This document shows, piece by piece, positions 44,409-49,412 of a DNA stretch of 64,000 bases. Every line of letters begins with the position of its first letter. Position 1 is the first letter of the stretch. A program made the translations under genes and the position numbers. The DNA lies in contig JAAFJE010000013.1 in NCBI GenBank assembly GCA_013298025.1, positions 62,001 through 126,000 on the forward strand, written 5' to 3'. The DNA comes from Cytophagales bacterium. GTDB lineage: Bacteria; Bacteroidota; Bacteroidia; Cytophagales; Spirosomataceae. A model generated the notes under the pieces. The model was not told the origin of the DNA, did not search any database, and saw only the letters and a list, made by a program, of their open reading frames with translations.

Positions 44409-44448
44409 GTGCATGAGTGATTTTATCACAGATAAAAGTAGCCCTTGT

Positions 44449-44480
44449 TAGCCCCGTGCCGACAAGGGCTATTTTTTTTA
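44449..44480 (+). terminator. Terminator of the TspO-like gene
   Basis: AGCCCTTGT and ACAAGGGCT form a 9-bp stem followed by a run of eight T, about 40 bases after the stop. Confidence 0.9.
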
Positions 44481-44661
44481 CTGCACTTTTCAGAAAAGAG
44501 CATACCGTTTAATAAGTTTTGTAGCAGATAACTGTTTGCATTTTTTTATCTTAAAGCATAATATGATACTTTAGGGAATCAAAAAGGTTGTTCTTTGCAA
44601 GAAAATGTCTTGTCCTAAAAAAGTTGAACATATATATCAAATTTTTAGATGCCATGTTTAA

Positions 44662-44692
44662 CCTCGCTGTTTCAAGTTTTACAACTTGGAAT
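44662..44692 (+). repeat. Island repeat, copy 1 (CCTCGCTG...CAAGTT/AACTTGG unit)
   Basis: Starts CCTCGCTGTTTCAAGTT and continues through TTAC to AACTTGGAA. The core TTCAAGTT...AACTTGGAA is a hairpin. Further copies lie at 46032-46064 (inverted), 46896-46923, 48478-48509, 48977-49007 and 49132-49164 (inverted). Confidence 0.85.
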
Positions 44693-44741
44693 AGCAAGAG
44701 TTTTACTAATACGAAATATTCCAACCGTAAAATAAAGAATA

Positions 44742-45770
44742 ATGAAAAAATTGATACTATTAAACAGTATGTTTTTGCTCTTATTTGGTTGTAGAGATGA
44801 ATCAACTATGATTAAATGCAACGGATTTGAAGGGCACCCTGAATATCTGTATTTTAAAACAGAAAAAGAGGGGTATTCCTTTAATAATAAAACCTATTCA
44901 GATTGGGACAATGTTACTGAAGAACAAATGAATAATCCAGATTTTTATCCCAAATCAACAGACGAGGCAAGTATTTATAAAACTATTGATGGAGGTAAAA
45001 GTTGGGTTAAAATAGATTCCATTTTAAATTATAATTATGCTGCAATAGCTACTCATGTTAATAATAGAGTTTACATATTAAGAAGTGATGAGCGAGAATA
45101 TTTCAAATATAACATTACCTGTTTTGAGATTGAAAGTGGAGTAATCAAAAATATTTTGAACACTCAGCCTGTAGTGTCTGCAATTTGGGATGATGAGCAT
45201 ACTGTATTTTTTACAAATAATAGAGGTTTAATAAATTTATATTCATTAGATAAAAATCAAAAGTTAGATAGTCTTAGTATTAAAGATTATGCCACACAGG
45301 GATTAAATATAAAAAACAAATCATACGCAGTTTTTTCTGCCTATGAAACTTCATATTTTGGTAGTATTGATGGAGAACATAAAGAAATTAAACTTTCTAT
45401 AACTCCTGAAAGTATTGTAAAACAAGATGAGAGTAAGATACTAATTGCTGGCAATACGCTAAGGGATGAAAATGAGATTTCATTAATAAGCTATGAGCCG
45501 AACACAAAGCAATCGAAAGTTATTCAGAAATTTAAAAACTACTCCATTATTGACTATTTACAATCTAACGACAAAGCAATAGTAGGATTTATTGGTAATA
45601 TCAAGGGAGCATTTGTTGAATATGATTTACTTTATAGTTTGGATAAAGGTACAACTTGGAAAATCAAAAAGTTAGAAGAAGCAAATTATGTACGACCAAG
45701 CAGTTTGATTAATAATATTCTGTATATATACAGTGGTGGTGCTAGAATGCAAAAAATAGTATTATTGTAG
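44742..45770 (+). CDS. Orphan lipoprotein with beta-propeller-like (BNR/Asp-box) motifs
   Basis: The 342-residue protein has a lipoprotein signal with lipobox LLFGC (Cys17). Two Asp-box-like motifs, TIDGGKSWVKI and SLDKGTTWKI, and repeated strand patterns suggest a beta-propeller as in sialidase-fold or YCF48-like proteins, but no catalytic site is evident. Codon use is very AT-rich compared with the 35-44 kb genes. It is the first gene of the repeat-separated array. Function is unknown. Confidence 0.75.
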   Translation: MKKLILLNSMFLLLFGCRDESTMIKCNGFEGHPEYLYFKTEKEGYSFNNKTYSDWDNVTEEQMNNPDFYPKSTDEASIYKTIDGGKSWVKIDSILNYNYAAIATHVNNRVYILRSDEREYFKYNITCFEIESGVIKNILNTQPVVSAIWDDEHTVFFTNNRGLINLYSLDKNQKLDSLSIKDYATQGLNIKNKSYAVFSAYETSYFGSIDGEHKEIKLSITPESIVKQDESKILIAGNTLRDENEISLISYEPNTKQSKVIQKFKNYSIIDYLQSNDKAIVGFIGNIKGAFVEYDLLYSLDKGTTWKIKKLEEANYVRPSSLINNILYIYSGGARMQKIVLL

Positions 45771-46202
45771 TAGTTGCAAGTATTTATACCAAATTTCATC
45801 CGTTTTCGCCGTTGTTGGTGTTATTTCACCAACAACTCATGCCCCCTCACTGGTCTAAGTGTTTTTTTTTCACTTAGACCCACAAATAAATGCAGTATTT
45901 GGCTGCCCTCGCTGGTCTAAGTGTTTTTTCACTTAGACCCATAAATAAATGCAGTCTTTGACTGCACTCAAATACAAAGTTATAACTAGGGCTTGCGTCT
46001 AGTCGCAGTCGGAGACTGCTTTTTACTGGGAGTTCCAAGTTGTTAAACTTGAAACAGCTAGGGGACACCGGGTATCCCTTTATATTTTTTTCAAAACACA
46101 ACACCTGAATAAGTCCAAACGCCAGAGCCACCCAAGAGTACATCAGCACCAATTACAGGAGCAACAAAAAACTAATAATATTTAAAAATAACTTATTTTA
46201 AT
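45771..46202. repeat. Cluster of palindromic elements between orphan genes 1 and 2
   Basis: The 432 bp hold: GTTGTTGGTG/CACCAACAAC (45811-45836); two GGTCTAAGTG/CACTTAGACC hairpins with T-only loops (45852-45880, 45914-45939); GCAGTC-N3-GACTGC (45951-45965) and a degenerate relative (45892-45906); and a composite inverted copy made of GCAGTCGGAGACTGC (46005-46019) plus the CAAGTT/AACTTG unit (46032-46064). A higher-GC stretch at about 46090-46165 reads on the minus strand as VAPVIGADVLLGGSGVWTYSG and may be a gene remnant, a weak call. Confidence 0.8.
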
Positions 46203-46697
46203 ATGAATCTGAAAATTCTTATCATTGCTACTACGATATTTATATTCTCATGTAATACAAAGGAGAAAAAAAATGTAGATACGAATGTAATCTCTCAAGA
46301 TAGTAGTCAAAAATATGCAGAAAATGTAGCAGAGACTTTTGATGATTTTTATAAGAAATTCTATTCTGATAGCACATTTCAGTTTAGTAGGGTTAGATTT
46401 CCGTTGGAAGGTACTGACTCTGATTATGAAGATTTAGGGAAACTTAAATATAAAAATTTTGAAAACGATAGAATCTTCATAAAAAACAATAAGTTTTTTT
46501 GGAAAAAATCGGGATGGCATTTCCTTAAAACATTGAAAAATCAGGGTGATTTTGGATATAATAAAAAAATTGAAAATAAAGGAAATACAGTCCAAGAGGA
46601 AATATATTTAGAAGGTACAGGAGACATGGATGTAAGACAATTCAAACAAATAAATGGGAAATGGTGGTTAATTTATTATGCCTCACTGATGTATTAA
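46203..46697 (+). CDS. Orphan lipoprotein, function unknown
   Basis: The 164-residue protein has a lipoprotein signal (MNLKILIIATTIFIFSC, Cys17), a charged linker with many Asn, Asp and Lys, and a compact domain from about 45. That domain ends DVRQFKQINGKWWLIYYASLMY, a pattern seen in DUF4348-like lipoproteins (NGKWWL after a repeated FY motif), a tentative resemblance only. It is AT-rich like its neighbours and flanked on both sides by island repeats. Confidence 0.7.
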   Translation: MNLKILIIATTIFIFSCNTKEKKNVDTNVISQDSSQKYAENVAETFDDFYKKFYSDSTFQFSRVRFPLEGTDSDYEDLGKLKYKNFENDRIFIKNNKFFWKKSGWHFLKTLKNQGDFGYNKKIENKGNTVQEEIYLEGTGDMDVRQFKQINGKWWLIYYASLMY

Positions 46698-46997
46698 TAT
46701 TTTAAAGACTCCCTCTGGTCGTTGTTTAAGCGAAGCGTTCCCCCCACTGGTCTAAGTGTTTTTTCCCTTGCTGTTTCAAGCGACCCACAAAAAAAGATTT
46801 TTGCACAAAAGTCAAACAACCGATAGCTTTATATTTGAAAGTGAAAGTGTATTGGTAATTTGTTAATAATCAATATGTTAAAAATCGGTTGTAGGAAGTT
46901 TAAGAACTTGGAATAGCTAGGGATTCCTGTCTGCCACAATAACCATTTTCATATACACAAATTCAAACCCAATTTGATATATATTCCCTCATAAGCC
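46698..46997. repeat. 300-bp spacer with chimeric repeat between orphan genes 2 and 3
   Basis: At 46749-46786 the left arm GGTCTAAGTG and its T-loop run straight into CCCTTGCTGTTTCAAG and then CGACCC, so one repeat unit appears spliced into another. ACAACCGAT/ATCGGTTGT arms flank a TATATTTG -7 box (46830-46837), a possible promoter for the next gene. A further repeat half, AAGTTTAAGAACTTGGAA, is at 46896-46914. Confidence 0.7.
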
Positions 46998-47759
46998 ATG
47001 ATTTTTAGATTAACATTTATCGTCCAAATTCTAATTGTTTTTAGTGTTTGCACTTGTGGCAATACTAAAAGTTCAGATAATGCCCCAGAGCAAACAAAAA
47101 GTAGTCAGTCAGTTTTAAGCGAGCAGCAAATAGATTCACTTGAATTATTTTTTCAATCCAAAGGCGTACTTAGCTTTAACCCTACGGACATTAATTTGAA
47201 AAAAGATTTTGAGATATTGAATGAGGACAATACAGTTTATGCAACCCTTAACTTGTCTTTAGATAAAATAATTATTCAGGGTAAACACTTTTCACTTAAT
47301 GAGTTTGCAAACGATAATTCATTCAAGAGTCAATATCAGTTTTTTCCTAAAGAGTTTTTTCCTGACCAGTCAATTATTCAGTTTGAATATGCAAGTTTAA
47401 CCAATGATGTTGCTGAAATATTTATCAACAAAGAGCATAGCAAAAAAAAGAAAATTAAATTAAGCACTCATATTTTTAAAGTTGAATCGTGGAAAAAACA
47501 CATAGTCGGATGTATGATTGATTTTAATGTAAAAATTAATCCTATTAGGGCAAAAATGCTTGATAACTCAAAATCATTAGGATATGAAAATAGTGGCGAA
47601 GACTATATTTTTGTCATAAGTGAAATAGTTGGTGATTGGGTGAAAATAGAATGTGCTGAAATATGTGATTACCCTTGTAGTTCAGGAAAGAAATATAATG
47701 GATGGATAAAGTGGAAGGCTGGTAATAAATTATTAATACGTCTTTTATATTCTTGTTAG
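46998..47759 (+). CDS. Orphan lipoprotein with C-terminal SH3-like region, function unknown
   Basis: The 253-residue protein has a lipoprotein signal (IVFSVCTC; Cys18 or Cys20). A middle domain of about 120 residues is followed by a C-terminal segment (about 190-250, MLDNSKSLGYENSGEDYIFVISEIVGDWVKIEC...GWIKWKAGNKLLIRLLYS) with the look of a bacterial SH3 domain, including a Cys pair that may form a disulfide. It is very AT-rich. The next gene begins 36 bases after its stop with no repeat between, so the two may form one cassette or operon. Confidence 0.7.
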   Translation: MIFRLTFIVQILIVFSVCTCGNTKSSDNAPEQTKSSQSVLSEQQIDSLELFFQSKGVLSFNPTDINLKKDFEILNEDNTVYATLNLSLDKIIIQGKHFSLNEFANDNSFKSQYQFFPKEFFPDQSIIQFEYASLTNDVAEIFINKEHSKKKKIKLSTHIFKVESWKKHIVGCMIDFNVKINPIRAKMLDNSKSLGYENSGEDYIFVISEIVGDWVKIECAEICDYPCSSGKKYNGWIKWKAGNKLLIRLLYSC

Positions 47760-47795
47760 CCCTCGCTGAACTCTTACAAAAACTAAACAATCAAT

Positions 47796-48467
47796 ATGGA
47801 CCATGTAAAGAAGATTCAGCAAAACAAATATTTAATCGTATGTGGGATTTTGTTGATTAGTGGTCTGTTTATTTATTATTTGATTTCAAGAAATAATGAT
47901 GTAAAGATGATTACAGAATATTATAGGTTTGACGGGACTACCTTAAAATATTCTGATACAATTATGATTAAAAAAAAAGGAGTTAATTATGAAATTCATA
48001 TCTCAAATGATAAAAGAAAAGACACCAATTTCGTGATTAATACAACCGACGCTCAACTTTTTCTTTTAAATAAAAGCACTAACATAATGACTCATGAGGT
48101 TAAAGAAAATAAGATGGTTAAATCAAAAGTTCAATCAACTTTCTTTACACCTTATCTGACAAATAATAGTGTTTTTGAAGCAAAAAAAATGTTTAAAATT
48201 GAGAATAATGAATATACAGTGTATAGATATTTAGAAAATTTTCTTGATGAAAAGGATTGTAATGGTTACAGTTATTATCTAAAAGATGTTGGATTTATTG
48301 CCTATATTAATACAAAATCTGAATATTATTGGGTAATTAAAGAAATTTCAAACAGTGCTTATTTAAGCGATTCTCACAGAGAAAAGTTAATAAAGTCATT
48401 GAAAGATGATACTGTTTTTTTTAAAAATAAAAGATATGTACCTCCAATACCAAATGAATTTCGCTGA
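47796..48467 (+). CDS. Orphan membrane-anchored protein, function unknown
   Basis: The 223-residue protein has one N-terminal membrane anchor (about 13-30, YLIVCGILLISGLFIYYLI) and an extracytoplasmic domain rich in Lys and Asn with no recognised family. The last 131 bases before its final codon (48331-48461, ending VPPIPNEF) are repeated exactly at 49162-49292. The coding sequence is extremely AT-poor in G and C, for instance about 18% GC at 47941-48000. A repeat copy begins 11 bases after its stop. Confidence 0.7.
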   Translation: MDHVKKIQQNKYLIVCGILLISGLFIYYLISRNNDVKMITEYYRFDGTTLKYSDTIMIKKKGVNYEIHISNDKRKDTNFVINTTDAQLFLLNKSTNIMTHEVKENKMVKSKVQSTFFTPYLTNNSVFEAKKMFKIENNEYTVYRYLENFLDEKDCNGYSYYLKDVGFIAYINTKSEYYWVIKEISNSAYLSDSHREKLIKSLKDDTVFFKNKRYVPPIPNEFR

Positions 48468-48477
48468 ATGAATTTTT

Positions 48478-48535
48478 CCCTCGCTGTTTTAAGTTTAACA
48501 ATTTGGAACAATAACTCAAATGCAGTCTCTAACGG
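48478..48535 (+). repeat. Island composite repeat copy after orphan gene 4
   Basis: Begins CCCTCGCTG, has the AAGTTTAACAATTTGG palindrome and a degenerate GCAGTCTCTAACGGC in place of GCAGTCTCCGACTGC; the following ACAACAAGTACAAAGAAC resembles the flank of the copy at 48977. Same order and spacing as the 48977-49034 copy. Confidence 0.8.
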
Positions 48536-48626
48536 CACAACAAGTACAAAGAACCGCAAGAGGGTAAAATCAAATACATGCCAGCTCATATACAATTATT
48601 CAAAATACTAAACGACAAATAGCATT

Positions 48627-48971
48627 ATGCTTAAGAAAATATTTTTATTTATAACGCTTGTTATTACACTAATATTCATTTACAAAAAATTGAATATTAA
48701 GTTCTCAAAAGAAATAAAATATCCAATATACGAAGGTATCTTAGGAGAATTGTTTATTAAAGTTGGAGATAATCAATATCTAACAACCATAGAAAATGAA
48801 ATGGTAAATGGCGACCTTAAGAAAATAAATGTTCCTGTTAGTTCAATTGATATTCCGACGTTTCATAATATTGAGGGAAGGAATAAAGTAATTGCAGAAT
48901 ATGAAGATAAAAACTATTCTTATCTTATCCATGATGGTGAAGATAAGATAATTATTAGAGAGCAAAAGTAA
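48627..48971 (+). CDS. Orphan small membrane-anchored protein, function unknown
   Basis: The 114-residue protein has an N-terminal hydrophobic anchor (MLKKIFLFITLVITLIFIY) and a roughly 90-residue hydrophilic domain ending EDKIIIREQK. No family is recognised. It lies between two direct copies of the composite repeat (48478 and 48977) inside the 700-bp segment that separates the two copies of the 131-bp duplication, so it looks like an inserted cassette. Confidence 0.65.
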   Translation: MLKKIFLFITLVITLIFIYKKLNIKFSKEIKYPIYEGILGELFIKVGDNQYLTTIENEMVNGDLKKINVPVSSIDIPTFHNIEGRNKVIAEYEDKNYSYLIHDGEDKIIIREQK

Positions 48972-48976
48972 TTTTT

Positions 48977-49034
48977 CCTAGCTGTTTCAAGTTTAACAAC
49001 TTGGAACAACAAATCAAGTGCAGTCTCCGACTGC
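48977..49034 (+). repeat. Island composite repeat, left half of an inverted pair
   Basis: CCTAGCTGTTTCAAGTT... (48977-49007) followed 12 bases later by GCAGTCTCCGACTGC (49020-49034). Its inverted partner is at 49104-49164. Confidence 0.88.
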
Positions 49035-49103
49035 ACAACAAGAACAAGGAACAACAAGATGGAAGAGTCTATTGTTTCTATTATGCTCATTTTGAGCATG
49101 GTC

Positions 49104-49164
49104 GCAGTCGGAGACTGCTTTATTATTGGGCGTTCCAAGTTGTTAAACTTGGAACAGCGAGGGG
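49104..49164 (-). repeat. Island composite repeat, right half of an inverted pair
   Basis: GCAGTCGGAGACTGC (49104-49118), 13 bases, then GTTCCAAGTTGTTAAAC... to GCGAGGGG (49132-49164): the reverse complement of the copy at 48977-49034. The 69 bases between hold TGCTCA/TGAGCA. It runs directly into the duplicated gene end. Confidence 0.88.
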
Positions 49165-49343
49165 TAATTAAAGAAATTTCAAACAGTGCTTATTTAAGCG
49201 ATTCTCACAGAGAAAAGTTAATAAAGTCATTGAAAGATGATACTGTTTTTTTTAAAAATAAAAGATATGTACCTCCAATACCAAATGAATTTTTCCCTGC
49301 TGGTACAAGTGTTAAGCAAAGCTTCACTTTCACCCACCAATAG
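49162..49343 (+). pseudogene. Duplicated 3' fragment of the orphan gene at 47796-48467
   Basis: Bases 49162-49292 are identical to 48331-48461 (131 bp, offset 831), encoding VIKEISNSAYLSDSHREKLI through VPPIPNEF. The frame then diverges to FPAGTSVKQSFTFTHQ and stops at 49343. There is no start belonging to the original gene: an in-frame ATG at 49059 reads through the inverted repeat and is unlikely to be meaningful. This is a truncated copy produced by recombination or insertion. Confidence 0.85.
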
Positions 49344-49412
49344 GTTAAAACCCTCGCAGTTGCTCACTTCGAGGGAGAAATCAAGTGCAGACGCTATCTG
49401 CAAACCACGTTC
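49293..49412. repeat. End of the repeat island before apbE
   Basis: Degenerate repeat pieces: CCCTGCTGGTACAAGTG (49295-49311), CCCTCG/CGAGGG (49351-49375) and GCAG/CTGC (49387-49401). Base composition returns to the chromosomal norm at the apbE stop (49413). Confidence 0.65.

What the first reader, a model, noticed from the sequence alone, without database searches (positions are those of the whole stretch)
44409..49412. Repeat-separated array of orphan membrane/lipoprotein genes splitting a flavin redox locus
A block of very AT-rich DNA sits between the TspO-like gene and apbE. It holds five unrelated orphan genes, all lipoproteins or membrane-anchored, separated by copies of one composite palindromic repeat family in both orientations. 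This resembles a cassette array in which the repeats act as recombination or mobility sites, but no integrase, transposase or attC-like R'/R'' pair is visible. It could be an undescribed gene-capture or shuffling system.
Basis: partly seen in the sequence, partly recalled or inferred. Interest (0 to 1): 0.72.

Follow-up and report, generated by a model that had tools for sequence, protein, structure and literature searches.

The report
Immunity-gene array divided by mobile repeats
A bacterium of the Flectobacillus group carries a row of small, probably protective genes separated by tiny mobile DNA repeats, and the same kind of repeat often marks where such genes have been copied, gained or lost elsewhere.

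Summary
An AT-rich 5-kb block with five small lipoprotein or membrane genes and palindromic repeats lies between the TspO-like gene and apbE, and is absent from this place in relatives. Corrections: (1) The repeats are REPs/REPINs, not attC-like sites. At least about 100 copies occur genome-wide; the densest cluster surrounds a single-copy RAYT transposase gene of the Bacteroidetes type (group 5/subclass 2.6). (2) Some of the genes look like orphan immunity genes. Relatives of o2 and of three other REP-bounded families lie just 3' of toxin genes in related genomes (M23 peptidase, TseH, muramidase, RHS tip); o1, o4 and o5 have no such relative. (3) REP edges mark gene rearrangements: 18 of 131 duplication ends lie within 10 nt of a REP edge (about 2 expected), one gene is duplicated together with both flanking REPINs, and two sister species differ at a REP-bounded segment with two genes. 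It resembles recombinase-associated acquired interbacterial defence arrays without the recombinase. RAYT moving REPIN-gene-REPIN composites is possible but unproven. New variant of known kinds.

The parts
44660..44701 (+). REP-type hairpin, hairpin 1 only
   Evidence: z -2.9, 2 of 200 shuffles as good
44742..45770 (+). o1, 342-aa lipoprotein, BNR/Asp-box match far below cut-off; no relative found
45844..45969 (+). two REP copies with variant hairpin 1 (GGTCTAAGTG...CACTTAGACC) and the shared second hairpin
   Evidence: z -6.1, -7.3
46003..46064 (-). REP half-element, inverted, two hairpins
   Evidence: z -4.4
46203..46697 (+). o2, 164-aa lipoprotein, DUF4348/BACOVA_00961-like just below cut-off; NTF2-like solved relatives; relatives 3' of RHS-type genes in G003 and G099
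46741..46923 (.). partial and degenerate REP pieces
   Evidence: D1, D6
46998..47759 (+). o3, 253-aa secreted protein or lipoprotein; full-length relative without a toxin beside it in G123, C-terminal relative in an RHS-like array of G003
47796..48467 (+). o4, 223 aa, one N-terminal hydrophobic segment; no convincing relative
48476..48540 (+). degenerate REP half-element
   Evidence: z 0.05
48627..48971 (+). o5, 114 aa, one N-terminal hydrophobic segment; relatives in arrays divided by a different REP family in G001 and G002
48976..49163 (+). complete REPIN: two inverted two-hairpin REPs
   Evidence: z -11.3
49162..49292 (+). perfect 131-bp copy of the 3' end of o4, starting at the REPIN edge
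49290..49412 (+). variant REP-like hairpins up to the apbE stop codon
   Evidence: z -3.1

Best explanation
The block is an array of orphan genes, at least partly immunity genes: periplasm-facing lipoproteins or membrane-anchored proteins that would protect against polymorphic toxins, some of them aimed at peptidoglycan. Its repeats are REPs and REPINs belonging to a single-copy RAYT of group 5/subclass 2.6 elsewhere in the genome. Shown by sequence: REP identity and number, a RAYT inside the densest REP cluster, the array's absence at this place in relatives, and gene duplications that end at REP edges more often than chance. Inferred: RAYT spreads the REPINs; REPINs beside an incoming gene then act as patches of homology (recombination) or as portable ends (RAYT acting on the outer REPs), so genes are added, copied and lost as REP-bounded modules; the genes are kept because they neutralise toxins of neighbours.
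For: REP/RAYT: 102 + 103 core matches against 0 + 0 control. The Y1_Tnp gene C34:11799-12356 (185 aa; NHVH and YIHNNP motifs) lies between dense REP arrays. Of 26 flanks of 13 RAYT loci, own included, 14 carry a two-hairpin motif, against a mean of 0.03 and a maximum of 1 in 100 shuffles, with several different sequences. Modules: 18 of 131 distinct duplication ends lie within 10 nt of a REP outer edge, null mean 2.0, maximum 8 in 2000. C16:914-1725 and C7:129426-130239 are 95% identical over [REPIN][gene][REPIN] with unrelated flanks. At the o5 locus G002 has 1,068 bp with two genes where G001 has 60 bp of REP; the left junction is at a REP edge, the right one inside a REP. Immunity: relatives of REP-bounded genes lie just 3' of an RHS-M23 gene (o2), a TseH-domain gene (c105) and an RHS tip (c131), or follow effector-like genes including a muramidase (lipo259); Imm11 passes its Pfam cut-off in 2 of 40 array-region genes. 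Genes with REPs on both sides have median GC 0.322 (n=31) against 0.408 for those with none near (n=176), P=2e-12.
Against: No convincing relative of o1 or o4 was found and o5's two relatives sit only in arrays. Relatives of o2 lie beside a toxin in 2 of 5 loci; o3's full-length relative has none beside it and its G003 relative matches only the last 75 residues. In G003 similar orphan arrays exist without these REPs and with no RAYT match. o3-o4 has no REP. Some duplicated genes do not end at REPs (L015/L029). The Tai4 assignment is below the family cut-off. Beyond the G001/G002 junction identity falls from 96% to 82%, so a replaced segment is as possible as an insertion. No function or movement was tested.
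Confidence: 0.65

Rival explanations
1. Passive decoration: REPINs insert preferentially in AT-rich intergenic DNA, orphan islands happen to be AT-rich, and the repeats have no part in moving the genes.
For: REP neighbours are low in GC; REPINs are known to lie between genes (PMC3116915); G003 has orphan arrays without them; some REPINs lie between genes of normal GC (L023 and L025).
Against: Homology of duplicated stretches stops at REP outer edges more often than expected (18 of 131, null mean 2.0; the ends are not all independent). The C16/C7 module ends at both outer edges within a few nt. The G001/G002 difference has its junctions at or in REPs.
Confidence: 0.2
2. Homologous recombination only: REPINs act as dispersed homology, so that gene-plus-REPIN pieces integrate into a resident REPIN, and tandem copies arise by unequal crossing-over.
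For: Tandem gene-REPIN copies in C8 (L017:1-1048 and 1151-2184, 93%). The left and right ends of 33 REPINs vary independently (rank correlation 0.04, P=0.31), as exchange between them would give. In the C16/C7 module the middle of the left C7 REPIN is closest to the right C16 REPIN, not the left one.
Against: In the C16/C7 module the left outer 60 columns are identical and carry a variant seen in only these 2 of 33 elements, whereas resident REPINs should differ. The right side is mixed: a rare variant occurs in 3 of 33, all in these two loci, but the two right ends differ at 3 columns and the C7 one is nearer (2) to an unrelated element. One case only.
Confidence: 0.43
3. [quoted passage not shown]
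For: Co-oriented short low-GC genes with recurring intergenic motifs, as rAID is described in PMC12247911 (passages). One tyrosine recombinase gene lies about 2 kb from another REP array on the same contig (C5:42326-42844).
Against: None of the 9 genes scanned in and beside the window array is a recombinase; of 6 tyrosine recombinases in the genome the only one on this contig is about 64 kb from the window array. The repeats surround a RAYT instead.
Confidence: 0.05
4. The orphans are ordinary lipoprotein or envelope genes acquired by transfer, not immunity genes.
For: o1, o4 and o5 have no toxin-linked relative; 3 of 5 o2 loci and the full-length o3 relative have no toxin beside them.
Against: Toxin-linked relatives for o2, and for c105, c131 and lipo259 elsewhere; two Imm11 genes separated by REPs after an RHS-like tip on C6.
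Confidence: 0.32

Closest known systems
REPIN-RAYT systems (Bertels and Rainey 2011, PMC3116915: abstract and Discussion read)
   Same: Many intergenic palindromic REPs, paired as inverted doublets, around a single-copy RAYT; clusters and singlets also present.
   Different: Here REPINs bound gene modules that are duplicated or gained at REP edges. The paper's Discussion only remarks that REPINs incorporating DNA beneficial to the host would have an advantage.
TnpA-REP subclass 2.6 = RAYT group 5 (PMC6006769: passages read)
   Same: Bacteroidetes, about 180 aa, NH[LIV]H and YIH[QN]NP motifs, flanking atypical secondary structures without GT[AG]G.
   Different: No geometry is given in the passages seen.
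rAID orphan immunity arrays of Bacteroidales (PMC12247911: passages read)
   Same: Array of short, co-oriented, low-GC, effector-less immunity genes with conserved intergenic motifs.
   Different: No tyrosine recombinase found with the window array; the intergenic motifs are REPs with a RAYT elsewhere; the toxin links found are to RHS-type and peptidoglycan-targeting toxins.
Orphan T6SS immunity arrays of Vibrio cholerae and RHS orphan tips (PMC5361080: passages read)
   Same: Heterogeneous orphan immunity genes accumulating by transfer.
   Different: There they follow an effector locus and the passages seen invoke displacement and recombination, not repeats; here an effector-less array with REPs lies between metabolic genes.
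Integron cassette arrays (recalled)
   Same: One-gene modules separated by a folding repeat.
   Different: No integrase nearby, REPs on either or both sides of a gene, REPs also scattered as singlets.

Membership tests
REPIN-RAYT | Many copies of a short intergenic palindrome in one genome | tested here: met
   102 + 103 matches, control 0 + 0
REPIN-RAYT | REPs paired in inverted orientation forming one long hairpin | tested here: met
   54 inverted pairs by a loose rule in 21 sequences, 33 of them canonical; z -11.3 for the window copy
REPIN-RAYT | Single-copy HUH/Y1 transposase gene flanked by the same REPs | tested here: met
   next best own paralogue only 35% identical
REPIN-RAYT | 5' GTAG/GTGG tag at the hairpin foot | tested here: not met
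   Absent from the REP by eye; PMC6006769 says subclass 2.6 lacks it, so this does not exclude that subclass
REPIN-RAYT | RAYT binds, cuts and moves the REPIN | not testable with these tools
   needs biochemistry
RAYT group 5 / subclass 2.6 | NH[LIV]H, YIH[QN]NP, about 179 aa, Bacteroidetes | tested here: met
   185 aa, SNHVH and YIHNNP by eye; Y1_Tnp E 1.3e-08; motifs; the W motif was not checked and no tree was made
rAID system | Tyrosine recombinase gene at the array | tested here: not met
   for the window array
rAID system | Co-oriented genes of about 100-300 codons with GC under 41% | tested here: met
   Five + strand genes, GC 0.26-0.30; four of 114-253 codons, o1 is longer (342)
rAID system | Conserved rAID intergenic motif | not tested
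   The rAID motif letters were not at hand; motifs here are REPs
Orphan immunity genes | Homologous to immunity genes linked to a cognate toxin, toxin absent beside them | tested here: inconclusive
   Window: o2 yes in 2 of 5 loci, o3 partly, o1/o4/o5 no; cognate toxins not sought genome-wide
Integron | intI integrase beside an attI/attC array | tested here: not met
   No tyrosine recombinase by the window array; attC not modelled
Composite transposon with DDE transposase | Target site duplication at both ends | tested here: inconclusive
   None visible by eye at the C16 and C7 copies; other copies not examined for it

The most novel reading that the evidence does not exclude
RAYT mobilises REPIN-gene-REPIN composites, so that REPINs, thought of as gene-less miniature elements, form a cassette system that collects orphan immunity genes into defence arrays. 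The same design would have arisen with a different REP family in sister species.
Probability: 0.22. Interest if true: 0.82.

Novelty: new variant of a known kind. Interest (0 to 1): 0.6.

Why it matters
What RAYTs and REPINs do for their hosts is an open question, and the 2011 REPIN paper speculated that REPINs carrying useful DNA would gain an advantage (PMC3116915 Discussion). These genomes give concrete cases in which REPINs bound genes that look useful in bacterial competition. If the reading holds, they also offer an alternative to the recombinase-associated defence arrays of gut Bacteroidales, and a reason why the array genes tend to be lipoproteins or membrane-anchored: some relatives sit beside peptidoglycan-degrading toxins.

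Tried and rejected
attC/integron reading: rejected; no integrase by the window array and the repeats match a RAYT cluster.

Ordinary DDE MITE: considered because of the long inverted ends; no target duplication seen by eye in one module and a Y1 transposase gene sits in the repeats.

Empty site for the C7 array: the two left neighbours are conserved in 4 of 4 congeners and none of the array genes matched there, but the right neighbours were not found either, so no clean empty site.

Sequence search of solved structures gave an 'NTF2-like' entry among others for o2 and nothing convincing for o3.

Literature: searches for REPIN+RAYT (18 of 18 listed), REP+gene cassettes (15 of 16 listed), REP+immunity genes (12 of 152 listed), REPIN+gene duplication (12 of 12 listed) and Flectobacillus+repeat (10 of 57 listed). 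No listed title or abstract start describes REP-bounded immunity arrays. Most subscription papers are not held, so this is weak evidence of novelty.

Dropped rows and limits: one search left out ORFs under 90 aa and ORFs overlapping repeats by 35% or more, and by its repeat calls o3 and o4 are not among the 31. One search used 33 of the 54 pairs. One search kept HSPs with at least 200 non-REP bases and 75% identity; its 38 HSPs include RHS pieces and another repeat family, its ends are not all independent, and the loci were chosen because they hold REPs. One search scored at most 3 candidates per genome for a concatenated query, so relatives of o1 and o4 may have been missed; its weak hits in G085 (o2) and G210 (o4 end/o5, E 3e-4) were, respectively, looked at and not looked at. 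The simple ORF caller can misplace starts. RHS-like tips without a Pfam hit (L013, L031, L087, parts of L173) were called by eye or by similarity to each other.


Full report
SETTING. The window is G000:C5:62001-126000. The genus is therefore Flectobacillus or what GTDB places in it (inference).

THE BLOCK. Between TspO and apbE lie o1 to o5 on the + strand with GC near 0.3. None reaches a Pfam cut-off; o2 comes closest, with DUF4348 at E 4e-06, 26.8 of 27.2 bits, and a profile of o2 and five relatives matches solved structures, one named NTF2-like (3sbu, 4mjf and others). In G001, G002, G004 and Arcicella, apbE follows the PepSY-flavodoxin gene with 14-75 nt between the match ends; in Dyadobacter (L042) no apbE was found there. 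In G003 TspO and apbE face each other across about 300 nt without a REP match. The TspO terminator region and the apbE end align, so about 5 kb is extra here, or lost there.

THE REPEATS. The complete unit (window 48976-49163) is two inverted copies of a roughly 60-nt REP. Each REP has an edge CCCTMGCTG, hairpin 1 (CAAGTTTAACAACTTG core), a spacer of about 10 nt, and hairpin 2 (GCAGTCTCCGACTGC). The whole unit folds at -56.9 kcal/mol, z -11.3. The genome holds 102 forward and 103 reverse matches of the core, control 0. By DNA similarity 2 of 58 relatives also have a few copies, both congeners. The densest cluster, C34:11107-13413, surrounds a 185-aa Y1 transposase gene. Its motifs fit subclass 2.6/group 5 RAYTs, described as mostly Bacteroidetes with atypical flanking structures lacking GT[AG]G (PMC6006769).

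Matches to this RAYT at E 0.001 or better, some weak, occur in 19 of 38 other genomes searched. I fetched 12 loci from 10 of these genomes. Many carry palindromes on both sides, and 14 of 26 flanks (own RAYT included) hold a two-hairpin motif, against 0.03 on average and at most 1 in 100 shuffles. Three of the eight loci with a hit (L115-L117) are congeners with one REP family, so they are not independent. Five of 13 loci (L114, L119, L120, L121, L124) gave no hit on either side by this rule, whose limits I set after seeing the own and congener REPs.

WHAT THE REPEATS BOUND. In 20 sequences (window and 19 loci) genes with REPs within 400 bp on both sides (31) are low in GC and short: median GC 0.322 against 0.408 for 176 genes with none near, median length 164 against 287 aa. 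A strict lipobox was found in 4 of 31 against 14 of 176, so 'lipoprotein' is not a marked general feature by this test.

REP EDGES AS BOUNDARIES. Among self-similar stretches of these sequences, 18 of 131 distinct ends lie within 10 nt of a REP outer edge; shifted REP positions give 2.0 on average, at most 8 in 2000 trials. The cleanest case is C16:914-1725 = C7:129426-130239: REPIN, a 122-aa gene with a sub-threshold Tai4 match, REPIN, 95% identical over 814 bp, with the similarity stopping within a few nt of both outer edges. The two left outer 60 columns are identical and carry a variant seen in no other of 33 REPINs. On the right a rare variant occurs in 3 of 33, all in these two loci, but the two right ends differ at 3 columns and one is nearer to an unrelated element; the middles look exchanged. 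So the module may have travelled with its own outer REPs, which recombination into a resident REPIN would not give, but this is one case and half of it is mixed. C8 has a tandem gene-REPIN duplication, and C3 shares its left edge. In the window the copy of the o4 tail starts at the REPIN edge. Counter-example: L015/L029, 98% identical, whose ends lie 17-34 nt from REPs in L029 and far from them in L015.

BETWEEN SPECIES. o5 has relatives (75-77%) in G001 and G002, at another locus after RND efflux genes, inside arrays divided by a REP family like the one that flanks their RAYT. The two arrays align at 96% up to a REP edge; then G002 has 1,068 bp with two more genes where G001 has 60 bp of REP, after which alignment resumes within a REP, but at 82% identity. 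Gain, loss or replacement of the segment are all possible. One gene has thus been held in REP arrays of two different families.

WHAT THE GENES DO. In G003, o2's relative (45%) follows a 2154-aa RHS gene with a C-terminal M23 peptidase domain; in G099 it follows an RHS-like tip and three small genes, one of them Imm44-like below cut-off. The other three o2 loci (G002, G152, G085) show no toxin. o3 has a full-length relative (42%) without a toxin in G123, and in an RHS-like array of G003 a gene matching its last 75 residues (37%). Other REP-bounded families: c105's relative (48%) lies 10 bp after a gene with a TseH domain; c131's relative (58%) overlaps the end of an RHS tip; lipo259's relatives, mostly matched over their C-terminal SH3 part, follow effector-like genes in G001, G002 and G003, with a Pfam-supported muramidase only in G001. 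On C6 of the window genome two Imm11 genes follow an RHS-like tip and are separated by REPs. The parsimonious reading is an array that is at least partly orphan immunity, some of it against envelope-targeting toxins, which would fit lipoproteins and membrane anchors. o1 and o4 remain without any convincing relative.

COMPARISON. It works like a rAID array (short orphan immunity genes with intergenic motifs) but fails the recombinase criterion: the only one of 6 recombinases on the contig is about 64 kb away; it lies about 2 kb from another REP array, with other genes between. The repeats are members of the REPIN-RAYT class. Using them as module borders is the unusual part; Bertels and Rainey raised only the general possibility.

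Noticed in passing
L017:18058-18747 (G000:C8): A second, weaker Y1_Tnp-like gene (229 aa, E 0.0033, below cut-off) sits between REPs; the paralogous locus L021 lacks it, and its left junction is at a REP edge.
   Followed up: partly
L015, L017, L018, L021, L025 (e.g. L015:7347-8100): Another tandem palindromic repeat (units around CTTGCAGGAAGGTT...CACACGATGTTTTGCTCCTGCAA) keeps company with the REPs and is readable as an ORF.
   Followed up: no
L166, L167 (G001:C22), L168-L171: Tandem arrays of effector-like and small partner genes in Flectobacillus relatives, with muramidase and colicin-type DNase domains in G001.
   Followed up: partly
L087:4287-14779 (G003:C7): Array of repeated RHS-like tips and small orphan genes in which a 300-nt core, not a REP, is the recurring sequence.
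   Followed up: partly
L024:9426-9890 and L093:8456-8860: AT-rich degenerate tandem repeat beside the RAYT cluster and again at C12, about 500 bp downstream of another Y1 transposase match (C12:128943-129116).
   Followed up: no
G000 contigs C3, C8, C16, C45: REPs lie within about 1 kb of a contig end, so repeats may break the assembly and cut some arrays.
   Followed up: no
L028:9814-11307 (G000:C7): A BACON-domain protein with a C-terminal secretion sorting domain lies between two REPINs, so not everything bounded by REPs is immunity-like.
   Followed up: no
L029:4657-5438 (G000:C41): Two adjoining genes between REPs, possibly the pair that carries the one nucleotidyltransferase substrate-binding match; which member matched was not checked.
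   Followed up: no
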